Position numbers and translations under genes: made by a program. A stretch of 52,859 nucleotides of DNA from a virus. The stretch's first letter is position 1; every line of letters begins with the position of its first letter. Positions 5,012 through 52,859 of the stretch are shown piece after piece. The notes below the pieces were generated by a model that did no database searches, was not told the DNA's origin, and saw only the letters and a program-made list of their open reading frames with translations. Location of the stretch: IMG/VR virus record IMGVR_UViG_3300027816_000137, positions 1 to 52,859 of that record; one strand, given 5' to 3'.

Positions 5012-5020
5012 AGTGTTGAC

Positions 5021-5053
5021 ATAAAGAGCCCAGTTTTTAAGCTGGGTTTCTTT
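5021..5053 (+). terminator. Rho-independent terminator after the giant virion gene
   Basis: CCCAG (5029-5033) pairs with CTGGG (5042-5046) across an 8-base loop, and the flanking AAAGA/TCTTT can extend the stem. A T-rich tail follows. It lies 10 bases after the stop codon. Its tail runs directly into a TATTTTTG promoter box at 5053-5060. Confidence 0.75.
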
Positions 5054-5060
5054 ATTTTTG
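5053..5060 (+). promoter_or_regulatory. Promoter -7 box (TATTTTTG) abutting the terminator
   Basis: TATTTTTG matches the Bacteroidota -7 consensus TAnnTTTG and lies 15 bases before the ATG at 5076, leaving room for a very short leader. It would restart transcription for the fibre genes after the terminator. No clear -33 TTTG is visible, so it may need a phage factor. Confidence 0.45.
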
Positions 5061-5075
5061 TTAAAAACAAAGAAG

Positions 5076-5588
5076 ATGCCAATTACAGCGTCATTTACAG
5101 CATCACAAAGTTCCGATTGTACTACCTTTCAGATTACCGATACAACAAACTATTCTGCTCCTGAGACTAAGGCTGCTATGACTAGTCGCTATCTGTATCT
5201 GTATAATGCAGATGGAACACTTTATAAGACTATAAATTTCGCATACGCTACATATCCTACTGATATAGTTACGATTACTGGTCTTGATAAAGATTACGCT
5301 TTTACCGTGAATATGGAGATTACTCCTACTACTCCGGTTGTAGGCAGCGTATATACCGCATCTAAGGTTGTGGCATTGGTTTGCTACTCTAAGGTGGCTT
5401 TCTTTGAGAGGCAAAATAAGATGGTGGTTGAACCATCGCTGTTAAACAATACAGAATACCTTAAGGACAGTATGAAGATTGTTCTTGACATTGAGGCGGC
5501 TAAGAATGCAGAAGCGGATACGGATGTTCTGAATGCTCAGAACGCTATTGACAGAATTAAATTCATAACCGATAATGACGCTATTTAA
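5076..5588 (+). CDS. Hypothetical structural protein (neck/tail region)
   Basis: 170 residues from ATG 5076, preferred over an in-frame TTG at 5058 because that TTG lies in the promoter box. The N-terminal half is Thr/Ser-rich and beta-like (SFTASQ, YLYLYNADGTLYKTI), as in Ig-like virion proteins. The C-terminus is helical with many Asp, Asn and Ala residues. It is the first gene after the terminator/promoter and its stop overlaps the next start (TAATG). I do not recognise a named family. A virion role is inferred from position. Confidence 0.6.
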   Translation: MPITASFTASQSSDCTTFQITDTTNYSAPETKAAMTSRYLYLYNADGTLYKTINFAYATYPTDIVTITGLDKDYAFTVNMEITPTTPVVGSVYTASKVVALVCYSKVAFFERQNKMVVEPSLLNNTEYLKDSMKIVLDIEAAKNAEADTDVLNAQNAIDRIKFITDNDAI

Positions 5589-6148
5589 TGCCTCAATATA
5601 CTACTACACAAATACAGCAGTGGATAAGCAGGGCTAACAAGGCTCTGTATAAGCTAGGCACTAAGTCTACTGATGAGCGTTTTTTTGAGAATGACAATAC
5701 ATTTGAGGACGAGAAGATATTGATTTACTGCTTGAAGAAGGCGGTATCTTGGCTTTATACATCACCATCTGTTGACGCTCAACAACTTGCAAGCCTTGTA
5801 TCTTTACTAATAAGCAGGATTACCATATATGATTTCGGTAAGCAGTTGCCTATGTACAACACAGGGACTAGTGAATATGTTGGCTTGTCTGGCGATTATA
5901 TTTCTATTCCTCCTACGCCTCCTGCTGCTGGTGCATCAGTACCTGATGATATAACACTTGTTGGTGGTACAGATATTACAGTTGGCGTTACATCATTTAG
6001 CGACGCTAGACTTCTAAATAAAAGATACAGAATCGTAAGAAATAGTATTAACTTCTACGATTGGTATAAAGGAGGCAGTACGGTGTTTCTTACAGGTGTA
6101 GGTGATAATGTAATTAGTGGAGATGTATTTGTAATACAATTTTATTGA
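5588..6148 (+). CDS. Hypothetical tail-region protein
   Basis: 186 residues, translationally coupled to the previous gene by a one-base overlap. The N-terminal ~90 residues are helical (QIQQWISRANKALYKLG). A Pro-rich linker (IPPTPPAAGASVP) leads to a small beta domain ending in DVFVIQFY. A helical anchor followed by a small beta head would suit a neck or fibre-attachment protein, but I recognise no family. It is followed one base later by the signal-peptide fibre gene. Confidence 0.6.
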   Translation: MPQYTTTQIQQWISRANKALYKLGTKSTDERFFENDNTFEDEKILIYCLKKAVSWLYTSPSVDAQQLASLVSLLISRITIYDFGKQLPMYNTGTSEYVGLSGDYISIPPTPPAAGASVPDDITLVGGTDITVGVTSFSDARLLNKRYRIVRNSINFYDWYKGGSTVFLTGVGDNVISGDVFVIQFY

Positions 6149-6149
6149 T

Positions 6150-13875: not shown

Positions 13876-15167
13876 TGGCATTAGTAAGAGCGGTAAAAAG
13901 TGGGAATTGGAGTGATACAACTGTATGGAATACAGGTGCTTTACCTACATCAGCAGACGATGTGTACAGCAATACTTTTACTGTTAGTGTGGATGTAAGT
14001 TTTACTGTCTTGTCTTTAAATAGCATTGCAGGAACAGGGATAACAGCAGGCGGTTCATTTGCTTTCAATACAGCAGTAGTCACAGGCAATGTTACAAGCG
14101 CAACTCCTTTAAATCCAGGTGCTACAAATCTTATTCAGGTGACAGCAACAACAGGAACTGTTACGATTAGTTTGGGAGGGAATGTTGCTCCAAGGGGTGT
14201 AACAAATGATGTATTGATTTTATATAGTGGTAACTGTAACTTAAATATATCTGGAACTAACTTCAATGGTACAACAAATGGCAATACAAACTCTTGCATA
14301 AGCAAAACATCAGCAGGATTAATAACTATTACAGGAAATGTAAATGGTGGTAACGCTGGAGCTAATACTGGAGCTCAAGCGTTTGTTTCTACAAATGGAA
14401 ACACCATAATAATAGGAAATGTTACAGGAGGTATTGGTTCAGGTGGTGGTCATAGAGGAGTAAACCAATCAGCAGGAACACTTACTATTACAGGTAATGT
14501 AACAGGTGGTCAAACAGCTTTAAGTAATAATGGAATCCTATTTTCAGGAACATCTTTAACAGTTAACGGTGCTTTATTAGGTGGAGCAGCTACTGCAATA
14601 GACTCTTCAGCCCCTGTAAACAATATAACAGGAAACGTAACAGGAGGAACAGTTGCAGCCATATTTTCTTTTTCAGCAAACATCATAAACGTAACAGGAA
14701 CTGTAACAGCATCTGCTACATCTCAAGCCATAAGCATGACAAACGCAAACGGTCAGGTGTATCTAAATGGCAACATGGTGAACAACAACGGTAAGATGGC
14801 AATATATGCTCCTATCGTTTGGCTTGATGCAAACAACACAACACAGGCTGATTTCTTTACAAGTGGCGGTGTGGCAAGAACACTATATTCAGAAGATACA
14901 GTGCCTAACACTCCTGCTGCAAACAACGTAAGAAGTGGAACAACATACGGAGCAGGAAGTACATTAGTCGGGACTATCGTTATGCCAACAGCAGCAAACG
15001 TGAGAAATGGTGTGGTTTACGATAATGGAACAACAGGAATAGCACTATTTACAACATCGCAACTATTAACTGAAATATCAGGTAGCTCTGACGCGGTAGC
15101 AGTAAGGATAAGGAACTGCGCTACTCCTCAGATACTTGGTGAAATATTAGAAGCATATAAAAAATGA
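13875..15167 (+). CDS. Beta-helix appendage protein, paralogue of the upstream gene
   Basis: 430 residues. It shares the N-terminus (GNWSDTTVWNTGALPTSADD), GNVTGG-type turns and a C-terminus with the upstream 627-residue protein, but lacks the discoidin insert. The two arose by tandem duplication followed by gain or loss of one domain. The start overlaps the upstream stop (TAATG), and its stop lies within the start of the next gene (ATGA). Likely an alternative or additional receptor-binding appendage (inference). Confidence 0.7.
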   Translation: MALVRAVKSGNWSDTTVWNTGALPTSADDVYSNTFTVSVDVSFTVLSLNSIAGTGITAGGSFAFNTAVVTGNVTSATPLNPGATNLIQVTATTGTVTISLGGNVAPRGVTNDVLILYSGNCNLNISGTNFNGTTNGNTNSCISKTSAGLITITGNVNGGNAGANTGAQAFVSTNGNTIIIGNVTGGIGSGGGHRGVNQSAGTLTITGNVTGGQTALSNNGILFSGTSLTVNGALLGGAATAIDSSAPVNNITGNVTGGTVAAIFSFSANIINVTGTVTASATSQAISMTNANGQVYLNGNMVNNNGKMAIYAPIVWLDANNTTQADFFTSGGVARTLYSEDTVPNTPAANNVRSGTTYGAGSTLVGTIVMPTAANVRNGVVYDNGTTGIALFTTSQLLTEISGSSDAVAVRIRNCATPQILGEILEAYKK

Positions 15168-25937: not shown

Positions 25938-25979
25938 AATCTACGCGTGAGAGTGAACAATTATTAATACAGATAGAAT

Positions 25980-26319: not shown

Positions 26320-26757
26320 TTATTTTAATGTTTGATAATATTCAATTAAGTCCATATAAATATCTACGGACTTCTTATCAGGGTACTTGCGATACAGATA
26401 ATTGTGAATCTTCCTTATAGCGTGGAGTATAGAAGTTCTGTTCTTTTGACCGTTCAATAGTTTGACAATACTCTCAATGTTTATCATTGATATAGATGTC
26501 ATCATATACCAGCACCAGTGCCTTGTCTCTACGTTTTTGCCGTTTCTTATATCGTTGTCAAGCGTTTCATATCCGACATTGAATACAGCGCAGCAAGCGT
26601 CTCTCCACTTGTTGTACTCTTGAACAACAAAGTCGTCATTCCTTGGCTTACGATATACAATGAAACCTTTTGATGTTAGTTGAGAAGTCCACTTGGTATC
26701 TGTCTTTGAATTGAGGTCGGACAGTATCTGTTCTATTAAAGCCCCTATTGGTGTCAT
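26320..26757 (-). CDS. DnaA domain-IV-like DNA-binding protein (second copy)
   Basis: 145 residues. FNVGYETLDNDIRNGKNVET, RHWCWYMMTSISMINIES and NGQKNRTSILHAIRKIHNYL follow the order of DnaA domain IV helices. NRTSILHAIRKI stands where DnaA has DHTTVLHACRKI. It differs clearly from the 23685-24131 protein, so the two are distant copies or separate acquisitions. No ATPase domain. A role in origin recognition or repression of host DnaA sites is inferred. Confidence 0.6.
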   Translation of the reverse strand: MTPIGALIEQILSDLNSKTDTKWTSQLTSKGFIVYRKPRNDDFVVQEYNKWRDACCAVFNVGYETLDNDIRNGKNVETRHWCWYMMTSISMINIESIVKLLNGQKNRTSILHAIRKIHNYLYRKYPDKKSVDIYMDLIEYYQTLK

Positions 26758-27137
26758 AAATCTGATTTAATCTGTTTCAATATACCTTCTTCGAAATGAA
26801 GCTCTAAGGTACAAAACTTATCGTTAATAACAGAATAAACTTTGTCAGGCAGCGGTTCTATAACTACCTTGTGGTCTGTATCCAGTATTAAATCTACGTT
26901 TTTCCCAACTACTCCTATAGATATAGTCATATCCCTGAAGACTAACCTGCCTACTTTATCTATGTAATAGAACAGACCTTCGCCCCCAAGGGCATCTGTA
27001 TAGAAGTCGTACTCTGTAAGCTTTGCATAGTTGCCTTCTTTGGTTATTAGCCTTAGGACATTTACAGGAAGGAATGATTTAGGAATCATTACCATGTCGT
27101 TAATTTCATTAGAATCAATGTCTTCTGAATCTTTCAT
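26754..27137 (-). CDS. Hypothetical beta-rich protein
   Basis: 127 residues with an acidic N-terminus (MKDSEDIDSNEINDM) and alternating strands (FYTDALGGEGLFYYIDKVGR, DMTISIGVVGKNVDLILD). Unrecognised. The leader TTCACTAAACTAAAAACAAA resembles the shared early leader. Overlaps the next gene by four bases. Confidence 0.5.
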   Translation of the reverse strand: MKDSEDIDSNEINDMVMIPKSFLPVNVLRLITKEGNYAKLTEYDFYTDALGGEGLFYYIDKVGRLVFRDMTISIGVVGKNVDLILDTDHKVVIEPLPDKVYSVINDKFCTLELHFEEGILKQIKSDL

Positions 27138-27267
27138 ACTTTGTTTTTAGTTTAGTGAATGTTTCTTTTATAAATACAATTAGTGTTACGGAGGTGAATG
27201 CGACTGCCCAAGCACATACATATATGACAGACATCATATTATATATGCTGACTAGTAACTTATTCAT
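27115..27267 (-). CDS. Small membrane protein, 50 aa
   Basis: ATG 27267 to TGA 27115, overlapping the ends of both flanking genes. One membrane helix (VIYVCAWAVAFTSVTLIVFI) is followed by a basic tail (KLKTKYERFRRH). It fills an otherwise empty 120-base gap and is translationally coupled to the RecE-like gene. Function unknown; perhaps an early host-membrane modifier. Confidence 0.5.
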   Translation of the reverse strand: MNKLLVSIYNMMSVIYVCAWAVAFTSVTLIVFIKETFTKLKTKYERFRRH

Positions 27268-32913: not shown

Positions 32914-32934
32914 AGTTTTTGTTTAGATATGAGT

Positions 32935-34241: not shown

Positions 34242-34478
34242 TTAATTGTGTTTCATGCCGGACATGACTCCGTATCCTTTGCGTTGAGCCAGGCGGTTAA
34301 TCCTGTTTGCTGTATCAAGCGGCACGACCTGAATGGTGTTACCTGTTTTGTGATTGGTTACAGGTATGCACCCGACTCTTTGCGTATTGGAGCAGGCGAT
34401 ACAGGTACTGAAACCGCATTTGCTTAGGCGTAGTTCCGGCATAGGTTTGAGGCAGCGAGAGCAGGGGATTGTAGTCAT
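34242..34478 (-). CDS. Small zinc-ribbon protein
   Basis: 78 residues. CSRC near the start and CIAC about 20 residues later give a four-Cys zinc site, followed by CIPVTNHKTGNTIQVV, a segment I associate with small phage zinc proteins. The leader has GTTCACTCTC, the same ten bases as upstream of the primase-helicase. Confidence 0.6.
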   Translation of the reverse strand: MTTIPCSRCLKPMPELRLSKCGFSTCIACSNTQRVGCIPVTNHKTGNTIQVVPLDTANRINRLAQRKGYGVMSGMKHN

Positions 34479-34502
34479 AGCTAAAATGTTGAGAGTGAAC
34501 GA

Positions 34503-34934: not shown

Positions 34935-35057
34935 TTAGTCGTGTCCTGTCCCTTCTGTAAGGAATAGTTCCGAGTCTTCCATTTCCCATTCGTGTTTGCA
35001 GTACTTATCGAATAGGACAAAAGATAAGGCGATTAGTGCGATGATTAGTATTATCAT
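34935..35057 (-). CDS. Small membrane protein, 40 aa
   Basis: ATG 35057 to TAA 34935. One N-terminal membrane helix (MIILIIALIALSFVLF) and an acidic tail (EWEMEDSELFLTEGTGHD). Part of a run of tiny envelope-directed genes ended by the terminator just downstream. Function unknown. Confidence 0.5.
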   Translation of the reverse strand: MIILIIALIALSFVLFDKYCKHEWEMEDSELFLTEGTGHD

Positions 35058-35068
35058 AGTTGTTTTAT

Positions 35069-35236
35069 TTAGAATGAAACCATTTGGGCATTACCTCTTG
35101 GCTTAGGCGCAGCCCCGTTGTACTTAGCCTTCATCCAAACACCGCATCCACCACCTCCCATATTTCTGACCGGGTTGCAAGATGCCATAACAGAAATGAT
35201 AATTGCTAGTCCGAATAGTTTTTTCAACGTCTTCAT
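35069..35236 (-). CDS. Small lipoprotein, 55 aa
   Basis: The start at 35236 gives a clear lipoprotein signal (MKTLKKLFGLAIIISVMASC, lipobox MASC) and a Gly-rich mature peptide (NPVRNMGGGGCGVWMKAKYN). The same frame extends upstream to ATG 35371, which would bury the signal 45 residues in. The leader-like CACTCACC...AAAACAAA just before 35236 supports the short form. Confidence 0.55.
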   Translation of the reverse strand: MKTLKKLFGLAIIISVMASCNPVRNMGGGGCGVWMKAKYNGAAPKPRGNAQMVSF

Positions 35237-35391
35237 AATAGATTTGTTTTTGTGTTTGGTGAGTGATTGTTTAAATACTTTAGTGTCGAAGTAGTGGCAG
35301 TTCGGTGATGGTATGGGGCGTTCATACCTCGTGCCAACATTTAGCTGTTGTGCCCATTCGTTGAAGTTCATTTTGTTTAGAGTTTAAAGTG

Positions 35392-35528: not shown

Positions 35529-35672
35529 TTATGGGATGATTGTAAATGTGTAAGTTCCTGATTCATAAAACGGAGGAAATCCGATTAGCCGTACGTAATT
35601 ATACATTCCGTATAGCCTTTCGAGATAGCGTTCCGCTTGTCTTTGTGTACTGAAATGTTTTTTAATTGTCAT
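35529..35672 (-). CDS. Small conserved-looking phage protein, 47 aa
   Basis: ATG 35672 to TAA 35529. MTIKKHFSTQRQAERYLERL, YGMYNYVRLIGFPPFYESG and YTFTI form a helix plus strands pattern seen in tiny phage proteins of unknown role. Coupled to the upstream membrane gene by overlapping ATGA. Confidence 0.55.
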   Translation of the reverse strand: MTIKKHFSTQRQAERYLERLYGMYNYVRLIGFPPFYESGTYTFTIIP

Positions 35673-35854
35673 ACACTTACCTTTTTAAATTCTGCAATAG
35701 CCATGATAGTCAGTGTACCAGCAGATGCGAACACTAAGCTAATGGCAAATAGATTGAATCCTGTTGGCTCTAGCATTGCGAAACCTAGAATAGGTACGAA
35801 AGCTGTTACGATTATAGATAGGATTACTGCGAAGAATGATAATACTTTTTTCAT
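35669..35854 (-). CDS. Small two-helix membrane protein
   Basis: 61 residues: VLSFFAVILSIIVTAFVPIL and FNLFAISLVFASAGTLTIMA are membrane helices, with a basic end. Leader contains TCTAAACAAA right before ATG. Function unknown; could alter the host membrane early in infection. Confidence 0.5.
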   Translation of the reverse strand: MKKVLSFFAVILSIIVTAFVPILGFAMLEPTGFNLFAISLVFASAGTLTIMAIAEFKKVSV

Positions 35855-35859
35855 TTTGT

Positions 35860-36057
35860 TTAGATTGAGGGGTTAAAGTTTGGGTTTGCTGACATCTTGT
35901 TTAATAGTCTGAGTCTTGCCTGACTTTCGTACTCTTTAACGTCCATTCCCAGGAGATGTAGTATTTCCCTAGTCCGGGCGTGGGTGGATTGAGTTTTTAC
36001 GTGTACGTTTCTTCTGATTGTTCCGTTAGCTTTTACGGAGAGGATTTTCTGAGCCAT
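35860..36057 (-). CDS. Hypothetical small basic protein
   Basis: 65 residues from ATG 36057 (MAQKILSVKANGTIRRNVHV). An in-frame upstream ATG at 36093 is rejected because it lies beyond the ACTCACTCTTAAACA leader. Helical C-terminus (REILHLLGMDVKEYESQARL). Unrecognised. Confidence 0.55.
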   Translation of the reverse strand: MAQKILSVKANGTIRRNVHVKTQSTHARTREILHLLGMDVKEYESQARLRLLNKMSANPNFNPSI

Positions 36058-36086
36058 AACATTATTGTTTAAGAGTGAGTAAATAG

Positions 36087-36143
36087 GGGACATCGAGGAA
36101 TCGAACCTCGCTCTACCTTTCGCCTACACTTAGTCTCTGTCCC
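36087..36143 (-). other. Truncated tRNA-like element
   Basis: Reading leftward, GGGACAG starts the element and ATGTCCC ends it (six of seven acceptor pairs). Just before the 3' arm is a canonical T-arm: CGAGG-TTCGATT-CCTCG. Only 26 bases lie between the two halves, too few for D and anticodon arms, and CCA is not encoded. This is either a decayed tRNA or a tRNA-mimicking RNA element. It sits seven bases before the early leader of the 36057 gene. Confidence 0.55.
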
Positions 36144-36166
36144 TTTAAGTATAAAAAAAATACAAG

Positions 36167-36670: not shown

Positions 36671-37099
36671 TTATTCGATACCCGTTAATACTGAATCTGT
36701 TACCTGTTCTTTCTTCTCTCCTCTAAAGTAACGAGAGACCACATTTAACAGACGAGGGAAAGACCATCCGTTTAATGTGTTGCTATATTCTTCACGTGTT
36801 GTAAGGAATGGCAAGAAATCGGAATACTTTAAATTACTTATCTGTTCTGCTGTTATTGGTTTGCCTGTTTCGTCAGAAAGTAAGCGCACATAATCAGAAG
36901 CGAATTTTGTCAGCTGTTTGTAATGGAAGGAAAGTTTACGAGACTCATCCTTTGCATCTTTTACAGCCTGTTTTTTTGCTTCATTGGTTAACTTTCTTTT
37001 TAGCTTTGCTGTTGTGTCTTTCTCTTTTAAGGTGATTACTTTTTTTTCAGTGGCGATTGTTTCGCTAACCTGTGGGCTTTGTGTTGTTGTCTGTTTCAT
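36671..37099 (-). CDS. First gene of the leftward early operon, unknown function
   Basis: 142 residues. Lys/Thr-rich N-terminus (KEKDTTAKLKRKLTNEAKKQ), then a helical domain (LTKFASDYVRLLSDETGKPI, YSDFLPFLTTREEY). No family recognised. It is nearest to the control region, behind two tandem promoters, with the best early leader (TCACTC-A-TAAACAAAAA). A basic immediate-early host- or DNA-targeting protein is a fair guess. Confidence 0.55.
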   Translation of the reverse strand: MKQTTTQSPQVSETIATEKKVITLKEKDTTAKLKRKLTNEAKKQAVKDAKDESRKLSFHYKQLTKFASDYVRLLSDETGKPITAEQISNLKYSDFLPFLTTREEYSNTLNGWSFPRLLNVVSRYFRGEKKEQVTDSVLTGIE

Positions 37100-37120
37100 T
37101 TTGTTTTTGTTTATGAGTGA
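37100..37120 (-). promoter_or_regulatory. Shared early leader element (best copy)
   Basis: Leftward the leader reads TCACTC-A-TAAACAAAAAC, then AAA and ATG 37099. Exact TCACTC (GAGTGA on the given strand) also lies before genes starting at 25937, 33380, 34478, 35236, 36057 and 36217. Looser copies precede 23701, 27137, 28442, 29270, 32913, 34222 and 35854. Late rightward genes have A-rich leaders without TCACTC. Confidence 0.55.
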
Positions 37121-37135
37121 TTAATAATTACAAAG

Positions 37136-37167
37136 TAAAGATATGTATTAATGTAGTACAAAGCAAA
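37136..37167 (-). promoter_or_regulatory. Leftward early promoter, proximal copy
   Basis: TAAAGATA (37136-37143) and CAAA (37164-37167) with a 20-base spacer read TTTG-N20-TATCTTTA leftward, one base off the -7 consensus. It shares ATTAATGTA and the -33 neighbourhood with the copy at 37237. Predicted start about 37130, giving a leader of roughly 30 bases. Confidence 0.5.
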
Positions 37168-37236
37168 TAAATATTGTTAAAATATTCATAATGCTTTTTT
37201 ATCTGTTATCATCAATACATCATCAAAGAACTAAAA

Positions 37237-37269
37237 CAAAGATAATATATTAATGTACTACATACCAAA
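37237..37269 (-). promoter_or_regulatory. Leftward early promoter, distal copy
   Basis: CAAAGATA (37237-37244) and CAAA (37266-37269), 21 bases apart, read TTTG-N21-TATCTTTG leftward. Its spacer (ATTAATGTACTAC) is nearly that of the proximal copy, so the promoter was duplicated about 100 bases apart. Confidence 0.55.
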
Positions 37270-37340
37270 TAAAAACAAAACTATCTTTGAAACAATGTTG
37301 CAAATAACTGTTAAAGTTTTGTGAAAGGATTACTAATAAT

Positions 37341-37376
37341 ATTAGCAAACATATTGCTAAACATATTAGCACATAA
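37341..37376. repeat. Iteron-like 12-base repeats
   Basis: Three adjacent 12-mers: ATTAGCAAACAT, ATTGCTAAACAT, ATTAGCACATAA, with a looser unit just before. They lie in AT-rich DNA in the divergent control region. Either an origin (bound by the DnaA-like proteins) or operator repeats. Confidence 0.4.
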
Positions 37377-37439
37377 CAAAAATACTTTGTTCCTCTTATT
37401 GCATATAGAATAAATATTTTTTCTGTATCTAATCAGCGA

Positions 37440-37472
37440 CAAAGATACCTGAATACATCCGACAGAAGGAAA
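37440..37472 (-). promoter_or_regulatory. Possible third upstream leftward promoter
   Basis: CAAAGATA (37440-37447) is an exact -7 copy. The -33 position holds GAAA instead of CAAA after 21 bases, so this is weaker than the other two. Confidence 0.3.
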
Positions 37473-37819
37473 GAGAAATTAAATAGGGGGAATACCCTTC
37501 CATTGCGTCGGCATATCCCTTTAATAATCAATGAACTAACGGGAACGCATATACGATGTCTTTTAATTAGTAAATTTTAGGCTACTCAGTAGTAAAAATC
37601 GATTTCCCAAATTATCAACTATTGCAAAATGATTGATGTTACCCTGACGCTTTATGTATTATACGCTATTTTAGGAGAATTGGTAAATGCTTGATGTATT
37701 TGCTGGATGTGAGCTGTTATTTTTTTAATTAAATAATTATAAAATACAGCTAAATGTTTTTATAGATATTTAAACAGCAAATATTTTTATTGGATGTGTT
37801 GTGTTGCTGTTATGTGTAG

Positions 37820-38145
37820 CGCATAGTATCCCCTTTGATACGGGATGAATTTCGTTTACATCAGTTTAAGCTTTATGCCTTATGCCGTACGTTGTAGCGT
37901 CAGCTATACACCTTCGTAGCAGCCCAGATATACCTGTAAATCTTCTCATTACTTACAGCTGCTACCCATAAGGGTCTTTATGTGCTTAAACCATTTGCTA
38001 CGCTATCGGGGACACCTCGCTGTCTATGTTGACAGCTACTACCCGACGTCTGGGCTTTGGATTGATAGGGTAAACCTCTATCTCTAGAAAGCCGTAACTA
38101 CCTTGAGGGATAGTGCGTATGTCTGGACTTGTTCCTAGACTACTT
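37820..38145 (+). ncRNA. Candidate structured RNA in the control region
   Basis: About 325 bases, visibly richer in G and C than the flanks, with no open frame but many inverted repeats. GTAGCAGC/GCTGCTAC (37916-37923 with 37958-37965) encloses TGTAA/TTACA. AGCCCAGA/TCTGGGCT is long-range (37921-37928 with 38049-38056) and competes with the first stem. GCTGTC/GACAGC is at 38019-38036 and GGCTTT/AAAGCC at 38053-38093, enclosing GATA/TATC. ACTACC/GG-TAGT spans 38097-38114 and GTCTGGA/TCC-AGAC spans 38121-38140. Strand is uncertain. It does not look like tmRNA or RNase P to me. A replication origin is the other option. Confidence 0.5.
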
Positions 38146-38186
38146 CAAAGTTAGCATTAACAGCTGAAATTAAAAAATAATTTATA

Positions 38187-38216
38187 TTGTTTTTTTGCAA
38201 CAATGTTGTAAATTTG
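38187..38216 (+). promoter_or_regulatory. Rightward late promoter
   Basis: TTG (38187-38189), 19 bases, then TAAATTTG (38209-38216): the best match to the Bacteroidota promoter in the window. A small palindrome CAACA-A-TGTTG (38198-38208) directly abuts the -7 box. Predicted start near 38222. Confidence 0.7.
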
Positions 38217-38221
38217 TAATA

Positions 38222-38269
38222 TCTCAAAAAGCCGTCCCCGACTTGTTTCTACTTGTCGGGCCTTTTTTT
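38222..38269 (+). ncRNA. Short promoter-proximal RNA ending in a terminator
   Basis: The transcript from the 38209 promoter meets CCCGAC/GTCGGG (38237-38242 with 38255-38260) and a run of seven T. Without antitermination it would be about 48 bases long. The late genes begin at 38335, just beyond. Confidence 0.6.
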
Positions 38270-38334
38270 AAAGTGTTAATACTATTTTTAACTAATAACA
38301 GCTAATAACACTACATTTACAAAAATTATTCGTA

Positions 38335-41868: not shown

Positions 41869-42674
41869 TGCTACATGGAATCCCTTATATAAACGTAAAT
41901 AAAAACTATAACGGAAAAGAAGTAAGAGAGTTCCTGGCAATCTATAGAAACAAGTACTACCAAAAAAACAGGGATTATCTAAAAGTAAAGTACAGCCTTA
42001 AAAAACATAAGGACAAGAAAAGACGAATTATAGCCAACTACATCGAAAGAACAAAGGCAGCATACAGATTACTAAAGAAAGAACAGAAAAGAATAGAAAG
42101 ACTTAAAAAAACAAACAAGAAGAAGCTGGAAGTAGAAAGAAAAAAGTATGACCAGTTTGTAGTACAACAAAAAAAAGAGATACGAAAGAAAGAGAGGGAG
42201 AAACTAAAGTACAAGTACGTAGACGTAGACGGCAATACGAACCCGCGCAATTACGATATAATTACGTGGATTCGAATTTATACTAAAATTAATGTAATTC
42301 GCAGAAGAACAAAATTAAAATCACAAGAAATTTTGATTCTTTTGTGGATATACTCAAATGGTGAAGGAAACTCCAAGTCTACACAGTGGGCAGAGTTCAC
42401 CGATATGGGTAGTAAATACGTCAGGGTGTATTCTCTAAGACTGATTGAGTTCAACCTGATAAAAAGAGAAAAAATAGGAACCGCATATCACTATGATTTA
42501 ACAGAAAGAGGTAATAAATTTATTACACCTATCATAGAGTTTGTAAAACTAAAAACCGCAGATGCAAAAAGAGTCAAACGTAAATATGTACGGAATAGAG
42601 TACAACCTTCCGAAACAACCCCCGGCATACAAGATGGAGGGGACTCAGTACAGCAAGAAGGAACAGTACTTTAG
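41868..42674 (+). CDS. Coiled-coil plus winged-helix protein, small-terminase candidate
   Basis: 268 residues from ATG 41868, which overlaps the upstream stop (TAATG); longer in-frame versions run through the previous gene. Residues ~10-115 are very basic and helical (KKEQKRIERLKKTNKKKLEV). Residues ~145-225 look like a winged helix (LKSQEILILLWIYSNGEGNS, YSLRLIEFNLIKREKIGTAY). DNA binding directly upstream of the large terminase suggests the packaging-recognition subunit, though small terminases are usually shorter. Overlaps the terminase gene by about 110 bases. Confidence 0.5.
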   Translation: MLHGIPYINVNKNYNGKEVREFLAIYRNKYYQKNRDYLKVKYSLKKHKDKKRRIIANYIERTKAAYRLLKKEQKRIERLKKTNKKKLEVERKKYDQFVVQQKKEIRKKEREKLKYKYVDVDGNTNPRNYDIITWIRIYTKINVIRRRTKLKSQEILILLWIYSNGEGNSKSTQWAEFTDMGSKYVRVYSLRLIEFNLIKREKIGTAYHYDLTERGNKFITPIIEFVKLKTADAKRVKRKYVRNRVQPSETTPGIQDGGDSVQQEGTVL

Positions 42675-44598
42675 ATATACCGAGATACCTGAATCGTTTG
42701 AGCAACTAGAATACGATTCATCAGGTAACGTGCTATGGAATGATAAGCAGTGGGACTTCATCATGAGGGAACTAACCAGATGCCGCGATGGACATTGGTT
42801 CCTTAATAATGGGATGCCTACCTATCTTACAGGAAAATACTACTATTTCCTTAACTACTTCACCCTTGAAAATGGAGATAAACCGCAGTACAGGGACTGT
42901 GATAGAAGATACTACCTGTTCCTGGACCACTGCGAAAAGTCGCCTAACATACTAGGAATCATAAGGGTTAAGTCTCGACGTGAAGGTGCTACCTCGCAAG
43001 CCTCATCTAATCTTATATATACAGCTACAACCACCGAGCAGGCTAAATGTGGTATCGTGTCAAAGACAGGTGATGATGCTAAGTCTGTATTCAAAGAGAT
43101 GGTCGTGTACGCATTCCGTAACCTACCACTATTTATGAAGCCTGATATAGCAGCAGGCGATGACCCTGAGAAGATTCTTAGGTTTATGAAGCAGGTGTCT
43201 AGGATAAAGAAGAAGCAACAGACATCCATCATCGAAAAGCCAGAAGGTCTGAACTCACAGATAGACTTTAAAAATACAAAGCTAAACAGCTATGACTCTA
43301 AAAGAAATACAAGGCTGTTAATAGATGAAGGAGGTAAGTATCCAACAGACGTACCCATCCAAAGGTACTGGCCAATCGTACGCAAGACACTTGAGAAAGG
43401 TAGCCGCAAAGTGGGATTCGCAGAGCTCCCATCAACCGTAAACAAACTGAAAGACGGAGGAGCAGGGTTTAAAATCTTATGGAACGAATCTAACCAGTTT
43501 ACCCATAAGACAACTCCAACAGGACTTTACAGATACTTCAAGCCAGCATACGACGGATACGAAGGATTTATAGATAGGTATGGACTTAGCATTATCGACC
43601 CACCAACAAAAGACCAAGAGAGATTTCTTCAAGAGACAACTACACTTACGATTGATGAGATAAGACTAGGTGCTAAAGAATACCTGAGACAGAGAATCGA
43701 AAAGATAGAAGATGACGAGATGAGGCTGGAAGAAAAAAGGATGATGCCTTTTACAGAAGAAGAAGCCTTCGCTGCCGATGACTCAGAATCATTCTTTAAT
43801 ACTACACTCATCAGGGAACAAATTGAATACCTGAAAGAAAACAAACCACCACTAAGAAGAATCACATTCGGATGGGATGATAAGAACAAAGTAGATTACA
43901 AGGATGACCCAAATGGTAAGTGGATACTACTCAAGCAGCCAAGAGAAACAAACGCAATACACTGGGATGACTCCGGCAAAAAGCCATCTAACATACACAG
44001 GTATAAAATAGGAGTTGACCCATTCGCCTCTACCATCATAGTCGGTAAGGGCTCAAATGGAGTTATCGTAGTATATGAGCAGCTAGACACCACAGACCCA
44101 GAAAACACAGGGATGCCTGTTGCTATGTATGTAGCAAGACCTAAGACAAAGAATCTGTTTCACTCTGAAGTACTTATGGCTTGCCACTTTTTCGGATGCA
44201 AGGCTACTTACGAAAATGCGAATGATGACTATTTCGAATGGTTCATAGACAAAGGACATAAGAACTTTATCACCAAAACTCCTAAGTCTGTTATAGACCC
44301 TAACAGAAAAGCTAAGACTGTTCAGACATGGGGTGTGTCACCGAAAGACCCATTCTCACTAAATAAACAGCTTGAACTTGCTCAGTTTTGGGTGGACAAC
44401 TACTCACATAAAATGTTCTTCAAAGAAATATTTGAAGATATGTTAGAGTACGACCACTTCAACAGAACCAAGTCGGATATTACTGTTGCATTCATGATTG
44501 CACTTGTAGCAGCGGCTGGTGACGTTAGAAATGTGTTGAAAGAAAAGAAGGAGGTAGCACCCTTTCTTGCTACGTACGATATAAGCAACATCAGATAG
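42562..44598 (+). CDS. terL: Terminase large subunit
   Basis: 678 residues. Walker A-type IRVKSRREGATS (~residue 135), Walker B RLLIDEGGKY (~residue 251) and the nuclease aspartates in YKIGVDPFAS (~residue 485) and KSDITVAFMI (~residue 638) give the ATPase-nuclease order of phage packaging motors. The first ATG 42562 overlaps the upstream gene by 113 bases; ATG 42586 is an alternative. Ends in TAG, one of several genes that use this stop normally. Confidence 0.9.
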   Translation: MQKESNVNMYGIEYNLPKQPPAYKMEGTQYSKKEQYFRYTEIPESFEQLEYDSSGNVLWNDKQWDFIMRELTRCRDGHWFLNNGMPTYLTGKYYYFLNYFTLENGDKPQYRDCDRRYYLFLDHCEKSPNILGIIRVKSRREGATSQASSNLIYTATTTEQAKCGIVSKTGDDAKSVFKEMVVYAFRNLPLFMKPDIAAGDDPEKILRFMKQVSRIKKKQQTSIIEKPEGLNSQIDFKNTKLNSYDSKRNTRLLIDEGGKYPTDVPIQRYWPIVRKTLEKGSRKVGFAELPSTVNKLKDGGAGFKILWNESNQFTHKTTPTGLYRYFKPAYDGYEGFIDRYGLSIIDPPTKDQERFLQETTTLTIDEIRLGAKEYLRQRIEKIEDDEMRLEEKRMMPFTEEEAFAADDSESFFNTTLIREQIEYLKENKPPLRRITFGWDDKNKVDYKDDPNGKWILLKQPRETNAIHWDDSGKKPSNIHRYKIGVDPFASTIIVGKGSNGVIVVYEQLDTTDPENTGMPVAMYVARPKTKNLFHSEVLMACHFFGCKATYENANDDYFEWFIDKGHKNFITKTPKSVIDPNRKAKTVQTWGVSPKDPFSLNKQLELAQFWVDNYSHKMFFKEIFEDMLEYDHFNRTKSDITVAFMIALVAAAGDVRNVLKEKKEVAPFLATYDISNIR

Positions 44599-44629: not shown

Positions 44630-47083
44630 TTGACTCCGTTTTATAATCCAACATTGCAGTTTCAACTCAATCTTGATGGCGTATCAGATAAAGAGCTTGG
44701 CGAGAAAATGGCTAAGTACGTCCATTCCATTGTTTCAAATGAATACTTCGAGAAAAGGAATGTAGAGATTTCTAAGAATATGAAAGTATCCACCGGAAGG
44801 CAGGATATGAGAGACTATATGCAGTTCCTTAACATTGACGGAAAGCAGTCGTATGTTAACCTGGACTGGACTCCTCCAATGATTGCTCCTAAGTTTATGG
44901 AAGTACTTATTGGAGGGTTTATGAAACGTTCAGAGAAGCCAAGATGTACAGCAGTAGACCCTATCAGTACAAGAAAGAAAAAGTACGATAAGGATATGGC
45001 TGAGTTCAGAATGCTTGAGCCTGAGTTTAATAAGATGGCTGATGAGGCACTTGGTACGTACAAAGGACAAGACACATTTGAACCTGAAAGCTATGATGAA
45101 CTGGACATCTTCTTCAACGTTGACTACAGAACACCTGAAGAAATCCTCATGGAACGGGGAGCATCTATGGTTATGCACAACAACAACTGGAATGATATTA
45201 AGCGTAACCTATTATGTCACATCAGAGATGCAGGATACGGAGTTACTTATACAACAGCTGAAAATGATGGAACTGTAACAGTAGAAAATATTAACCCTAT
45301 AGATTACTTCTGCTCCTATTCTGAGAGAAACGACTTAAACGACGCATCTGTGATGGGGCATCGTAAGTCTATGAAACTGTACGAGTTAAGGAAGCAATTC
45401 GGAATGAATGAAGAGCAGCTTTTCGATATTGCCAAAACTTCTAAGGATTGTGTAAACCCTTACACCTTCAAGTGGAAGAATGAATATATGAATCCCGGCT
45501 CCCGACCTTATGACGATTACGCCATTGAAGTTTTGTTCTTTGAAGCAAAGACTGTACGTCCTATGTTTTGGGTTGAGAAGAACAGGGAGAACAGGAAATA
45601 TGTAGAGCGTAAGAAAGGAAGGCCTGAGAATGTAGCCGAAGATAAGATTGTGATACAGAAAGAGATGGAGGTTATTTACAAAGGCGTCTATCTACCTCAG
45701 TCTAATAGACTTCTGTATTTTAAGCAAAACTCTCCAATGATTAGACCTTCTAATCCTAAAGAGTTGACTAAAGCTTACTTCAGCTATTCGGTGTATATGC
45801 CTGGTAATATAGGTATGAACAATACGCCTCTTGCTGAAAGGATTAGTTCTTCAGTGCGTATGATTACGCTCACACATATGAAGATTCAGCAGCTTCTAGC
45901 CAAGATGAGACCATCTGGTATAGCTGTAGATATATCAGGATTGAAGGAGGTAAACCTAGGACAAGGCGAAGTAAAACCTCTTGAGCTACAGCGTGTTTAC
46001 GACCAAACAGGTAACGTATATTACAACAGCGTTGATGAAGATGGCGAAAGAAGAAATATGCCAATCAATGAATTACCAAATATTGGTAATATTAATCAGA
46101 TTAATGCTGCAATACAGGTGTATAATTTCTACGTAGCTAAAATACGTGATGAAATTGGTATCAATGAATACAGAGAAGGTTCAAGCGTTAATCCTAAAAT
46201 GGGATTAGGCGTTTTACAATCTCAAATACGCGAGTCTAACAATGCTACTGATTTCATCTATGATACTTATTTGGAAATTACTGAGCAGACGCTTACGAAA
46301 ATAGGTATCTTACTTCACGATTCAGTAGTGTATGGAGGTAAGGCATATAGAGAGTTCTTTGGTAATGCAGACCTCGCTAATATGTATTTCGAGTTCAAGA
46401 TGGAGATGCTTCCTGACGATGTAGAGAAATCTTACGTAGACCAGTTGGTAAATACAGCAGTTGCTAATAACCTGATAAACTTCGATGACGCATTTAAGAT
46501 TCGCAGGATTGATAATGTGAAGTTGCAGGAGCTATTCCTTACTAGAGCCAAGAATAAGAAGATGAACGAGGAGATGCAGAAGGCTCAGCAGAACTCTGAA
46601 ATGAACGCTCAGATTCAAGAGCGCTCAGCACAGGCTAAGATGCAAGCAGATGCTGCTATAGAAGAGCAGAAAGCTAAACTAAAAGTAATGGTTGAGGAAT
46701 CGTCATCAAGATTTAAGAATGACGAAAATATGCAGAAGTTTGTACATGAAGTTTTACTAACTTCGTTTAAGGAAGGCATACAGCTTACAGGATACGTGAA
46801 GGATATTGTAGATGGCTTCTTTGCTGAGAAGGCAAGGCAGAAACAAATGGAGGAAGAAGCAATAGCTCAACAGCAGCAGCAGGCTCAAATGGAATATCTT
46901 GCTCAGCAAGGTGTTGGACCAGAGCAGATAGCTCAACTGAAGCAACAGATGGATGCTGAGGCTATGGGTGGTGGTCAAGAAGGTGGTCAACAGGGTGGTC
47001 AAGAAGGTGGTCAAGAAGGTGGTCAACCTAACGAACAGCAAATGATGCAGATGATGCAACAGATGCAACAACAACCTCAATAA
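44630..47083 (+). CDS. Portal protein
   Basis: 817 residues. The start is TTG 44630; no in-frame ATG lies nearby and the sequence aligns with expectation from the first residues (.TPFYNPTLQF). Portal features include position directly after the terminase, large size, a wing/stem region rich in aromatic and acidic residues, and a helical C-terminal barrel (residues ~640-740) with EMQKAQQNSEMNAQIQERSA. The C-terminus is a Gln/Gly tail. Forms the dodecameric DNA gate at one capsid vertex. Family-level call from context and pattern. Confidence 0.8.
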   Translation: MTPFYNPTLQFQLNLDGVSDKELGEKMAKYVHSIVSNEYFEKRNVEISKNMKVSTGRQDMRDYMQFLNIDGKQSYVNLDWTPPMIAPKFMEVLIGGFMKRSEKPRCTAVDPISTRKKKYDKDMAEFRMLEPEFNKMADEALGTYKGQDTFEPESYDELDIFFNVDYRTPEEILMERGASMVMHNNNWNDIKRNLLCHIRDAGYGVTYTTAENDGTVTVENINPIDYFCSYSERNDLNDASVMGHRKSMKLYELRKQFGMNEEQLFDIAKTSKDCVNPYTFKWKNEYMNPGSRPYDDYAIEVLFFEAKTVRPMFWVEKNRENRKYVERKKGRPENVAEDKIVIQKEMEVIYKGVYLPQSNRLLYFKQNSPMIRPSNPKELTKAYFSYSVYMPGNIGMNNTPLAERISSSVRMITLTHMKIQQLLAKMRPSGIAVDISGLKEVNLGQGEVKPLELQRVYDQTGNVYYNSVDEDGERRNMPINELPNIGNINQINAAIQVYNFYVAKIRDEIGINEYREGSSVNPKMGLGVLQSQIRESNNATDFIYDTYLEITEQTLTKIGILLHDSVVYGGKAYREFFGNADLANMYFEFKMEMLPDDVEKSYVDQLVNTAVANNLINFDDAFKIRRIDNVKLQELFLTRAKNKKMNEEMQKAQQNSEMNAQIQERSAQAKMQADAAIEEQKAKLKVMVEESSSRFKNDENMQKFVHEVLLTSFKEGIQLTGYVKDIVDGFFAEKARQKQMEEEAIAQQQQQAQMEYLAQQGVGPEQIAQLKQQMDAEAMGGGQEGGQQGGQEGGQEGGQPNEQQMMQMMQQMQQQPQ
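46970..47029 (+). repeat. Five 12-base tandem repeats in the portal gene
   Basis: Five units of GGTGGTCAAGAA or near copies encode a GGQEGGQQ-type tail. Prone to slippage; copy number may vary among relatives. Confidence 0.8.
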
Positions 47084-50462: not shown

Positions 50463-51827
50463 ATGGCATACAATTCAGCGTCGGAGAAACCGTCAGCGTT
50501 TGTCAATCCCGGAGCAGGTCTAACAAGAGGCATTGTTAGTGACCTGTCTATTCTTAAGCCTCAATACTATCCTAAGTTCATCAGCAAGTATGGTGCTCAA
50601 AACTACACTATGCTTCTTGAAATGCTCGGATTCAAAGGTCAAGTAAAATCTCAGGTTATTCGTCACTTCGAAGACCTCGGTAAAATGCACCAAGCAGTTC
50701 AGGTTAAAACAAACGTAACAGGTGCTACTAATGGCTCTGCTGTTACTTTTGAATTGACTACTGGTTCTCACTACGATAGCGGAACTAAATCTCCTATCCG
50801 TGTAGGTGAAATCGTTGAAATCGCATCTACTGGTATTCAAGGTAAAGTAATCTCTGTTGATAAGACTTCAGCAAACTCTCACACAGCTACTGTACGTCCT
50901 CTTAGCTCTACTCAACAATTTGAGTCTGCTGCTGTTGATGGTCGTTTGGATGCTAACGAGTGGATTCTCTTCCGTGGACAAGCTGCGGTTGGTGAAGCTT
51001 CTTCTAAAGGAGATGCTCTGATTCCTCGCGTAGAAGAAGTAGTAAACTACGTTTCTGAAGTTCGTGAAGACTGGAGAGTTACAGACCGCGCTATGATTGA
51101 AGAAATCTGGTTTGCTGATAACTATTCTTACAAAGGTCTTGAAGATGCTGTAAAGCGTTTTATGAACAACAAAGAGTTTACTCTTATGTTCGGTAAGGAT
51201 ATTACTAATACCAACGCATCTGCTACTTCTAAGAACACAATCGGTCTTTTACAGCAGATTGAAAATCGTGGTACTGGTGTATCTTACACAGCTGGTTCTC
51301 TTGACCGCGCTAAGCTTCACGAAGTAACTCGTGCTCTTGACTTCAACGGAGGTTCTATGGAGAATCACCTTCTCGCTGACGTGTTCTTGCGTCAAGAGTT
51401 GGATGACGAACTGTTTGACCTTTACGATGCAGGTGCTATCCTTTGGGGTACTGTAGGTGGTAGCAAAGAAGCTGCTGCTATGTACGGATTCGGTTCTATC
51501 ACTATGGATGGTTATACTTTCCATATCAAGAAGTACCTTCCGTTCTCTCCTGAAGCTGTTTACGGTGCTACTCCTACTGACCATCAGTATAAGAACTACG
51601 GTATCGTTGTTCCGATGGCTCAAGGACGTGACCCTCAAAGCGGTGAGCGTTACAACTCTATCGAAATCACTTACAACAACGTGAATGGTAAAGACCTTCA
51701 TGTTTGGGAAACTGGTGCTTTCGCTAAGAGTCCTACAAGCGATACAGCTGAACTTAACGTACACCACCTGTGCTATGCAGGTCTGCGCGTGTTCGGTGCA
51801 AACCGCTTCGTACGCATCAGTGGTTAA
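50463..51827 (+). CDS. Major capsid protein
   Basis: 454 residues. Features include the N-terminal arm, a long helix (YKGLEDAVKRFMNNKEFTLM), a beta-sheet with GYTFHIKKYLPFSP and the C-terminal domain with LCYAGLRVFGANRFVRIS. Codon use is sharply different from the neighbours, with many C- and T-ending codons (CGT, CTT, ATC, TTC), as expected for the most abundant virion protein. A-rich leader (AAACTAAAAAAAA before ATG). HK97 fold assumed for a tailed phage. Confidence 0.85.
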   Translation: MAYNSASEKPSAFVNPGAGLTRGIVSDLSILKPQYYPKFISKYGAQNYTMLLEMLGFKGQVKSQVIRHFEDLGKMHQAVQVKTNVTGATNGSAVTFELTTGSHYDSGTKSPIRVGEIVEIASTGIQGKVISVDKTSANSHTATVRPLSSTQQFESAAVDGRLDANEWILFRGQAAVGEASSKGDALIPRVEEVVNYVSEVREDWRVTDRAMIEEIWFADNYSYKGLEDAVKRFMNNKEFTLMFGKDITNTNASATSKNTIGLLQQIENRGTGVSYTAGSLDRAKLHEVTRALDFNGGSMENHLLADVFLRQELDDELFDLYDAGAILWGTVGGSKEAAAMYGFGSITMDGYTFHIKKYLPFSPEAVYGATPTDHQYKNYGIVVPMAQGRDPQSGERYNSIEITYNNVNGKDLHVWETGAFAKSPTSDTAELNVHHLCYAGLRVFGANRFVRISG

Positions 51828-51846
51828 TCTTAACTAACCATAGAAG

Positions 51847-51877
51847 AAAGCCCCTCCAAAAGAGGGGTTTTTCTTTT
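51847..51877 (+). terminator. Capsid-gene terminator
   Basis: CCCCTC (51851-51856) pairs with GAGGGG (51862-51867), five-base loop, then TTTTTCTTTT. Twenty-odd bases after the capsid stop. Confidence 0.85.
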
Positions 51878-51963
51878 CGTATATGTTGAAGATAATCTCG
51901 TATCAATACGTATAACTGAACTACTTTTACATCCTTGGATTTAATCTGTTTTCTATTACCAAC

Positions 51964-51994
51964 TCCCCCGATGTTTTTACTTTGGGGGATTTTT
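51964..51994 (+). terminator. Second terminator after the capsid gene
   Basis: TCCCCC (51964-51969) pairs with GGGGGA (51984-51989) across 14 bases, then five T. It leads straight into the TATATTTG box at 51997. Confidence 0.7.
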
Positions 51995-51996
51995 CT

Positions 51997-52004
51997 TATA
52001 TTTG
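51997..52004 (+). promoter_or_regulatory. Promoter box (TATATTTG) for a short RNA
   Basis: TATATTTG lies two bases after the preceding T-tract. A start near 52010 would give a short RNA ended by the next terminator at 52042-52069. Confidence 0.45.
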
Positions 52005-52009
52005 CATTG

Positions 52010-52069
52010 TACATTACAAGTTTTTGTTTAGAGTGAATTCACCCTGTTGTGTTTACAACGGGGTTTTTT
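52010..52069 (+). ncRNA. Candidate small antisense-type RNA
   Basis: About 60 bases between promoter box and terminator. It contains TTTTTGTTTAGAGTGA (52021-52036), the complement of the early leader. It also has the palindrome GTGAATTCAC (52033-52042). Pairs with the leader of the 37099 gene over 16 bases with one bulged base, and with 11-14 contiguous bases of other early leaders. Confidence 0.4.
52042..52069 (+). terminator. Third terminator after the capsid gene
   Basis: A nine-pair stem, CCCTGTTGT/ACAACGGGG (one G-T pair), with a GTTT tetraloop (52042-52063), then six T. Confidence 0.8.
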
Positions 52070-52071
52070 AT

Positions 52072-52079
52072 TATATTTG
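52072..52079 (+). promoter_or_regulatory. Promoter box (TATATTTG) for the next structural gene
   Basis: TATATTTG two bases after the terminator's T-tract and 15 bases before ATG 52095. Fourth case of a box directly behind a terminator. Confidence 0.5.
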
Positions 52080-52094
52080 TATCAAATAATTACT

Positions 52095-52859
52095 ATGTCA
52101 AAAGAAAAACAGATTAAACAAGAAGTCCAATTACCCATTTTGGACGCAATTGACGACACTAAACCTGTCGCTCAAAAGCCTCAGATTAAAGAGTTTGAGG
52201 ATGATGATACAGTACAACTCAAAAGAATGGCTCAGAAAGTGCAGGAGAAAGTAAAAGCTCAGCAAAGAGAGCCTGAGATGTATGTGTTTAAATTACTTTT
52301 AGATGGAGGTCAAAAGCCAAAGGCTTACGAATCCGTTGTAAATGAAATGCCTGTATTTGATACAGCTTCCAACAGCGTTCGTACAATCCGTCTCATCAGA
52401 GGCGCTTCCTCTATTTGGATGGATGAGCAGGAAGGGTTTACTCCTCAGTACATTCAACGTAATAAACAGGATATCGTGTTTAACAACGGATACCTTCGTG
52501 TGCCTCGCACAAACAGAACTCTACTTAACTTTCTTCTGAATAGCGATGACTATGATAAGAAGGAGAGCCGTATGCGTAACAAGAGGGCTAAATTCACCCT
52601 TGTAAACTCAACAGAGGTAGAGTCAGAAGAGTTAAAGAAAGAAGAAAAGCGTTTAAGAGCTATCAACTATGCGATGAACGCGTCTGTAGAAGATATGCTT
52701 ATCCATGCTGAATATCTCGGTATCGGGATGACGAATGAGTTCGGAGAGCAAAAGACAATGGCTAAGGTGCGTGTAGAATACGCAAACAAGGCTGGTGCTA
52801 ATCCTGACCATTTTATGAATAGTGCAGGAACTACGGTGTCTAAGGTTCAGTACTTTGTA
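52095..52859 (+). CDS. Structural-region protein, 3' end missing
   Basis: At least 255 residues, running off the right edge. Gln/Lys/Glu-rich N-terminus (MSKEKQIKQEVQLPILDAID), then a mixed domain (YVFKLLLDGGQKPKAYESVV, NNGYLRVPRTNRTLLNFLLN) and a helical part (AINYAMNASVEDMLIHAEYL). Follows the capsid gene with its own promoter. Likely a head-completion or neck protein by position; family not recognised. Confidence 0.65.
   Translation, partial: MSKEKQIKQEVQLPILDAIDDTKPVAQKPQIKEFEDDDTVQLKRMAQKVQEKVKAQQREPEMYVFKLLLDGGQKPKAYESVVNEMPVFDTASNSVRTIRLIRGASSIWMDEQEGFTPQYIQRNKQDIVFNNGYLRVPRTNRTLLNFLLNSDDYDKKESRMRNKRAKFTLVNSTEVESEELKKEEKRLRAINYAMNASVEDMLIHAEYLGIGMTNEFGEQKTMAKVRVEYANKAGANPDHFMNSAGTTVSKVQYFV

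What the first reader, a model, noticed from the sequence alone, without database searches (positions are those of the whole stretch)
52010..52069. Short RNA complementary to the leaders of early genes
Seen: a TATATTTG box (51997) and a strong terminator (52042-52069) bracket about 60 bases containing TTTTTGTTTAGAGTGA. The leader of the first early gene (37104-37120) carries the same sequence with one extra T on the same strand, so the RNA could pair with that message over 16 bases just before its start codon. Contiguous matches of 14 bases occur at the 531-aa gene (32914-32927), 13 at 35371-35383 and 11 before 35854. Inference: a late-phase antisense RNA that shuts off early translation. Alternative: the same leader serves an antisense early ORF starting at 52014.
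Basis: partly seen in the sequence, partly recalled or inferred. Interest (0 to 1): 0.75.

Follow-up and report, generated by a model that had tools for sequence, protein, structure and literature searches.

The report
Phage RNA pairing with early-gene leaders
Between two capsid-region genes this uncultured Bacteroidota phage carries a roughly 61-base RNA gene with its own promoter box and terminator, whose front half is complementary to the ribosome-landing sites of many of the phage's own early genes; relatives carry differently worded versions at the same place, so it probably helps switch early genes off.

Summary
At 52009-52069 (+) lies a compact unit: TATATTTG box, a ~30-nt AU-rich stretch with GTTTTTGTTTAGAGTGAAT, and an intrinsic terminator; the next gene has its own promoter. 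The best matches to the unit's complement elsewhere in the window all lie in minus-strand early leaders just before start codons; late leaders are not matched. Among 34,838 other late-strand 20-mers none is as complementary to the early leaders. Four other close lineages keep the box, core and a terminator of different sequence. Two distant lineages (MCP 38-50% identical) carry a different RNA at the same locus that again pairs with their own early leaders. A blind scan of 13 genomes puts the best anti-early-leader site directly 5' of a late terminator in 8 (late-leader targets 0 of 13; shuffled leaders 2 of 39). The rival, an antisense early ORF at 52014, fails: 65/19/3/none/22 codons in relatives and no conserved minus-strand promoter box. 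Most likely a trans-acting antisense RNA that blocks translation of many early mRNAs. Transcription, timing and repression are not shown.

The parts
51997..52004 (+). TATATTTG, Bacteroidota sigma-A -7 box (TAnnTTTG) of the small RNA
   Evidence: TAyATTTG 13-23 nt upstream of the core in 5 of 5 close lineages; consensus in PMC9723704
52009..52069 (+). predicted ~61-nt antisense RNA (unit 2)
   Evidence: box and terminator spacing; predicted length 59-63 nt in six of the seven genomes folded and 56 nt in G021; not shown to be transcribed
52020..52038 (+). pairing core GTTTTTGTTTAGAGTGAAT, complementary to the early-leader consensus ATTCACTyTAAAACAAAAAC
52041..52069 (+). intrinsic terminator T3 (stem 52041-52064 plus T-run)
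   Evidence: stem kept with different sequences in relatives
52072..52079 (+). TATATTTG promoter box of the next late gene
51964..51994 (+). terminator T2 (stem 51964-51969 / 51984-51989 plus T-run), which isolates the unit upstream; its loop TGTTTTTACTTT is unusually conserved
51922..51960 (+). second, upstream mini-unit (unit 1): TACTTTTA box and conserved CCTTGGATTTAATCTGTTTTCTATTACC before T2; weaker complementarity to late leaders (cpn10-like gene 40895, gene 49315)
37100..37120 (-). target: leader of the first early gene (36671-37099), duplex about -20 kcal/mol
32914..32927 (-). target: leader of the 531-aa gene; 14-nt match plus pairing over ATGTAC, -24.8 kcal/mol
35371..35383 (-). target: leader of 35069-35371, 13-nt match
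35854..35868 (-). target: leader of 35669-35854
36062..36078 (-). target: leader of the 65-codon gene whose start is 36057
35063..35078 (-). target: leader of a 40-codon ORF starting at 35057
34487..34499 (-). target: leader of 34242-34478
27143..27160 (-). target: leader of 26754-27137
25938..25960 (-). target: leader of the primase-helicase gene (TTCACTCTCACGC...ATG; TTCACTNTCA kept in 9 genomes)

Best explanation
The unit encodes a small trans-acting antisense RNA of about 61 nt. A host-type promoter (TATATTTG) starts it at about 52009; terminator T3 ends it. Its mostly unstructured, U-rich 5' half pairs with the shared A-rich leader, and in some cases the start codon, of many early mRNAs. 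These phages probably infect Bacteroidota, which do not use Shine-Dalgarno sequences and rely on an open A-rich initiation region, so such pairing should keep the 30S subunit off and shut down early translation as the late programme takes over. Shown here: the sequence parts, the leader-specific complementarity, its conservation, and its recurrence with different sequences in other lineages. Inferred: transcription, timing, pairing in the cell, and repression rather than activation.
For: Top genome-wide complementary sites are early leaders, never late ones. Sum of the five best early-leader matches beats dinucleotide shuffles in G000, G005, G001, G002, G007 (0, 0, 12, 2, 0 of 300 reach it) while late leaders show nothing. 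Ranked by site against 25,690-50,525 other late-strand windows the unit is 1, 1, 1, 2, 3, 2, 2 in seven genomes of three lineages. Box, core and terminator are kept in five lineages while spacer and stem sequences change. G010 and G021 units, unrelated in sequence, match their own early leaders (2 of 500 and 3 of 150 shuffles). Blind scan: top site next to a late terminator in 8 of 13 genomes; late-leader control 0 of 13, shuffled leaders 2 of 39. TCACTC is an early-leader motif: 17 of 258 early versus 0 of 265 late leaders. GibS of Bacteroides thetaiotaomicron pairs around start codons with an unstructured 5' seed, and the genus lacks obvious Hfq and ProQ (PMC7366714).
Against: No transcript data. 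Single pairings are AU-rich and individually unremarkable (18 of 300 shuffles); G001 is weak in one test (65 of 300). Within the close group units match each other's leaders nearly as well as their own, so fine-scale co-variation is only partial. The G001 and G002 seeds are predicted to sit in a weak hairpin. Leaders of another lineage also give some terminator-adjacent hits (3 of 13 top sites), because leader consensus is partly shared. G011 supports the G010 case only weakly (18 of 500). G008 and G015 show no such site. Cultured Elemovirus lacks a unit after its capsid-like gene.
Confidence: 0.68

Rival explanations
1. The minus strand of the motif is simply another early leader, serving an antisense early gene that starts at 52014 and runs into the end of the capsid gene.
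For: The minus-strand reading TCACTCTAAACAAAAACTTGTAATG looks exactly like an early leader and the window has a 65-codon ORF behind it.
Against: ORF length is 65, 19, 3, none and 22 codons in five lineages; no minus-strand TAnnTTTG within 120 nt except in G001; the plus-strand box and terminator are kept in all. In G010 and G021 the unit has other sequences.
Confidence: 0.07
2. The unit is transcribed but acts differently: it activates early mRNAs, soaks up a leader-binding protein or host RNA, or mainly targets host genes; the likeness to early leaders serves that.
For: Pairing does not fix the sign of the effect; the box is of the same type as those upstream of first early genes in relatives, so it might act early; host targets could not be searched.
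Against: Pairing covers the last ~25 nt of the leader and sometimes the start codon, the usual place for inhibition; GibS uses the same place and represses (PMC7366714).
Confidence: 0.15
3. A dispersed DNA element (binding site or recombination-derived leader copy) that happens to sit between late terminators; the RNA is irrelevant.
For: Leaders within one genome resemble each other, so any copy of a leader in reverse would match them.
Against: The copy lies in antisense orientation within the late strand and directly 5' of a terminator, as the top site in 8 of 13 genomes, whereas only 0.1-0.6% of late windows are so placed; many motif-bearing early leaders sit in short gaps inside operons, where a DNA operator makes little sense.
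Confidence: 0.07
4. Chance: T-rich sequence before terminators matches A-rich leaders.
For: Both are low-complexity and AT-rich.
Against: Late leaders are A-rich too and give 0 of 65 terminator-adjacent sites; shuffled early leaders give 5 of 195; own early leaders give 17 of 65.
Confidence: 0.03

Closest known systems
GibS sRNA of Bacteroides thetaiotaomicron (PMC7366714)
   Same: Bacteroidota; no obvious Hfq or ProQ in the genus; long unstructured 5' seed pairing around start codons; 3' terminator
   Different: chromosomal, ~145 nt, a few metabolic targets; not a phage RNA, and no sequence relation was tested
T4 RegA translational repressor (PMC3014915)
   Same: one phage product that occupies A/U-rich initiation regions of about 30 early and middle mRNAs and competes with the ribosome
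   Different: RegA is a protein; here the proposed agent is an RNA
lambda OOP, P22 sar, P1 c4 antisense RNAs (PMC12197685)
   Same: phage-encoded RNAs that pair with phage mRNA, in sar interfering with translation initiation
   Different: described as acting on one transcript each; this one lies 15-27 kb from its targets and matches many
PreS (lambda) and VpdS (VP882), phage sRNAs (PMC12197685)
   Same: phage-encoded, trans-acting base-pairing RNAs
   Different: Hfq-linked in Proteobacteria; PreS targets host dnaN, VpdS acts on host sRNAs and phage replication; no shared early-leader code is described in the passages read

Membership tests
trans-encoded base-pairing small RNA | own promoter | tested here: met
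   TAyATTTG box in 5 of 5 close lineages; promoter activity itself not measured
trans-encoded base-pairing small RNA | own Rho-independent terminator | tested here: met
   different stem sequences, same structure
trans-encoded base-pairing small RNA | no conserved coding sequence | tested here: met
   no plus-strand ORF inside; minus-strand ORF not conserved
trans-encoded base-pairing small RNA | complementary to mRNAs encoded elsewhere, at initiation regions, more than chance | tested here: met
trans-encoded base-pairing small RNA | RNA is made and changes target expression | not testable with these tools
   needs RNA-seq and reporters
known Rfam RNA family | match at gathering score | tested here: not met
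   only sub-threshold, chance-level matches
cis-antisense RNA (OOP, sar type) | encoded opposite its target | tested here: not met
   targets lie 15-27 kb away
antisense early protein gene at 52014 | conserved ORF and minus-strand promoter | tested here: not met

The most novel reading that the evidence does not exclude
In a whole clade of Bacteroidota phages, early genes share a lineage-specific leader 'address' and the late region carries, directly before terminators (as stand-alone RNAs or ends of late mRNAs), RNA seeds that read that address; the pair co-evolves and forms an RNA-based early-to-late translational switch, an RNA counterpart of T4 RegA.
Probability: 0.45. Interest if true: 0.86.

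Novelty: new variant of a known kind. Interest (0 to 1): 0.74.

Why it matters
Phage small RNAs described so far (as reviewed in PMC12197685) mostly have one or few targets or act on the host. One small RNA reading a shared leader of many of the phage's own early genes would be a simple, portable way to end the early programme, in a phylum where translation starts without Shine-Dalgarno pairing and sRNA biology is young. It would also explain why early leaders in these phages carry a shared ATTCACT-type motif, and it yields direct, cheap predictions.

Tried and rejected
Antisense ORF at 52014: rejected on relatives. Known RNA families: none. DNA-level relatives of 51600-52859 in phage records and of 51900-52100 in plasmid records: none; MCP relatives in phage records and in species genomes: none. 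A collection-wide pattern search for the core plus C-run found only the known relatives and chance hits in unrelated DNA. Searching with the downstream gene added no new lineage. Mean duplex energy separates early from late leaders only weakly, so ranking and alignment scores were used. In the first genome-wide ranking spurious plus ORFs inside the early block gave false competitors; redone with the early block excluded. Unit 1 against late leaders is significant against shuffles but does not stand out among late windows, so it is only a lead.

Full report
What the window is. A 52,859-base IMG/VR virus contig. Structural genes run rightward, with terminase 42562-44598, portal 44630-47083 and capsid protein 50463-51827; replication and recombination genes run leftward at about 20.6-37.1 kb, among them primase-helicase, exonuclease and Erf-like annealing protein. 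I call the two blocks late and early on gene content and strand; there are no time-course data. Terminase is about 29% identical to cultured Flavobacterium 'elemo' podoviruses, so the host is probably a member of the Bacteroidota.

The observation. All the stated pieces are present. Behind the capsid gene come three terminators in a row (T1 51851-51872, T2 51964-51994, T3 52041-52069), each of the latter two preceded by a short stretch with a -7-like box, and then the promoter box of the next gene at 52072. With the box at -12 to -5 (PMC9723704) the RNA starts near 52009 and is about 61 nt long; the same rule gives 59-63 nt in six of the seven genomes folded and 56 nt in G021.

More than chance? 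The single best match is not remarkable for such sequence (18 of 300 shuffles). But 6 of the 10 best matches to the complement lie in early leaders (0 of 300 shuffles reach 6) and none in late leaders. The gapped list is cleaner still: all eight best non-self matches lie on the minus strand in the early block and each precedes a start codon (14-23 nt from the start of the match for the five measured, and 1-3 nt from its end for 37099 and 32913; at 35371 the match runs into the ATG itself); two precede starts my ORF caller had missed. Ranked against every other 20-mer of the late region's plus strand (34,838), the unit is first, z 7.5.

The early-leader motif. In nine close genomes TTCACT occurs in 29 of 258 early leaders (3.0 expected from shuffles) but 1 of 265 late leaders; TCACTC in 17 versus 0. 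It lies just before the A-rich initiation region, often in short gaps inside operons, so it is more likely an RNA than a DNA signal. In Flavobacterium johnsoniae A-rich, weakly structured initiation regions without Shine-Dalgarno sequences favour translation (PMC6847099).

Conservation. Five close lineages (G000, G004/G005, G001, G002/G003, G007; mostly 65-90% DNA identity in aligned blocks) keep the box, the core TTTTGTnTARAGTKAAT (W for the A in G002) and a terminator, while stem and spacer change. The core changes together with leaders in places: the G002 core TTGTGTTAAGT is matched by its own leaders ACTTAACACAA at two genes, while the window's core does not fit G002 leaders (z 0.2 against 4.5 at home; G002's own 3.3). 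This fine-scale co-variation is partial: many off-diagonal values are also high.

Independent lineages. Of roughly 90 further loci with a related capsid gene, most have one terminator and one promoter behind it, but some carry a unit of different sequence at the same place. Two had enough genome to test. The G010 unit matches its early leaders at 2 of 500 shuffles (its sister G011 18 of 500) and the G021 unit at 3 of 150; neither matches late leaders.

Blind scan. Asking only for late-region plus-strand 20-mers most complementary to a genome's own early leaders, the top site lies directly 5' of an intrinsic terminator in 8 of 13 genomes (17 of 65 top-five sites), although only 0.1-0.6% of late windows lie there. 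With late leaders as targets it is 0 of 65, with shuffled early leaders 5 of 195, with another lineage's early leaders 8 of 65. New sites found this way: G016 24603, G024 43221 (plus its capsid-downstream 42180), G006 24841, G001 23762, and G007 15117 and 26526. Some have no box directly upstream, so they may be ends of late mRNAs rather than stand-alone RNAs. Several of the 13 genomes are close relatives, so they are not 13 independent events; G000-group, G010, G021, G016 and G024 are the distinct ones.

Mechanism. Best reading: a trans-acting antisense RNA that covers the initiation regions of many early mRNAs and so ends early translation. Duplexes reach -24.8 kcal/mol for the 531-aa gene, including its ATGTAC, and about -20 for the first early gene. 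GibS of Bacteroides, which works around start codons through a long unstructured 5' seed, with no obvious Hfq or ProQ homologue in the genus, is the nearest host precedent (PMC7366714); T4 RegA is the nearest functional precedent, as a protein (PMC3014915). Not shown: transcription, timing, direction of the effect.

The alternative. An antisense early ORF at 52014 fails: ORF 65, 19, 3, none and 22 codons in the five lineages, no conserved minus-strand box, conserved plus-strand box and terminator.

Literature. I found no report of a phage RNA that reads a shared leader of its own early genes, but only an open-access library was searched with few queries; the T4 review states that no small trans-acting regulatory RNA had been functionally characterised from T4.

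Noticed in passing
51922-51996: A second mini-unit just upstream: TAnTTTTR box, a 26-nt block CTTGGATTTAATCTGTTTTCTATTACC conserved in five lineages, then terminator T2. Its complement resembles leaders of the cpn10-like gene (40895; AATAGAAA(A)CA just before ATG in 7 genomes), gene 49315 and, in the window, early gene 26757.
   Followed up: partly
36094-36152 (minus strand): A tRNA-like mini-element (GGGACA...TGTCCC stem plus T-arm GGTTCGATTCC, about 57 nt), missed by ARAGORN and Rfam, with changed but still pairing stems in G005, G007 and G019, directly before an early gene.
   Followed up: partly
L029-L031 (G007, reverse-complemented coordinates) about 15110-15137 and 26524-26545: G007 has two further anti-early-leader seeds, each directly before a late terminator (upstream of the cpn10 gene and after the gene following the capsid gene); they outrank its capsid-downstream unit.
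   Followed up: partly
L217-L220 (G024) 43221 and 42180; L144-L147 (G016, reverse-complemented coordinates) 24603: Top complementary sites in distant phages, each directly before a terminator; 43221 and 24603 are followed by a TATATTTG promoter. The G024 seed GTTCATAAATTTAAGGTTAA mirrors its early-leader consensus TTAACCTTAAATTT.
   Followed up: partly
L097, L101, L103 (MCP-downstream): Short contigs with units whose complement reads like leader plus ATGAAA (for example AAAAATCAGTCGTATGAAAAAATC); no early region available to test.
   Followed up: no
L132-L135 (G010): The ends of this 73-kb contig repeat about 7 kb (the same genes at 327-6965 and 66399-73027), suggesting a genome of about 66 kb with terminal redundancy or circular permutation.
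   Followed up: no
37100-38334: A 1.2-kb stretch without obvious genes between the divergent early and late blocks; its part from about 37829 is conserved in some relatives.
   Followed up: no
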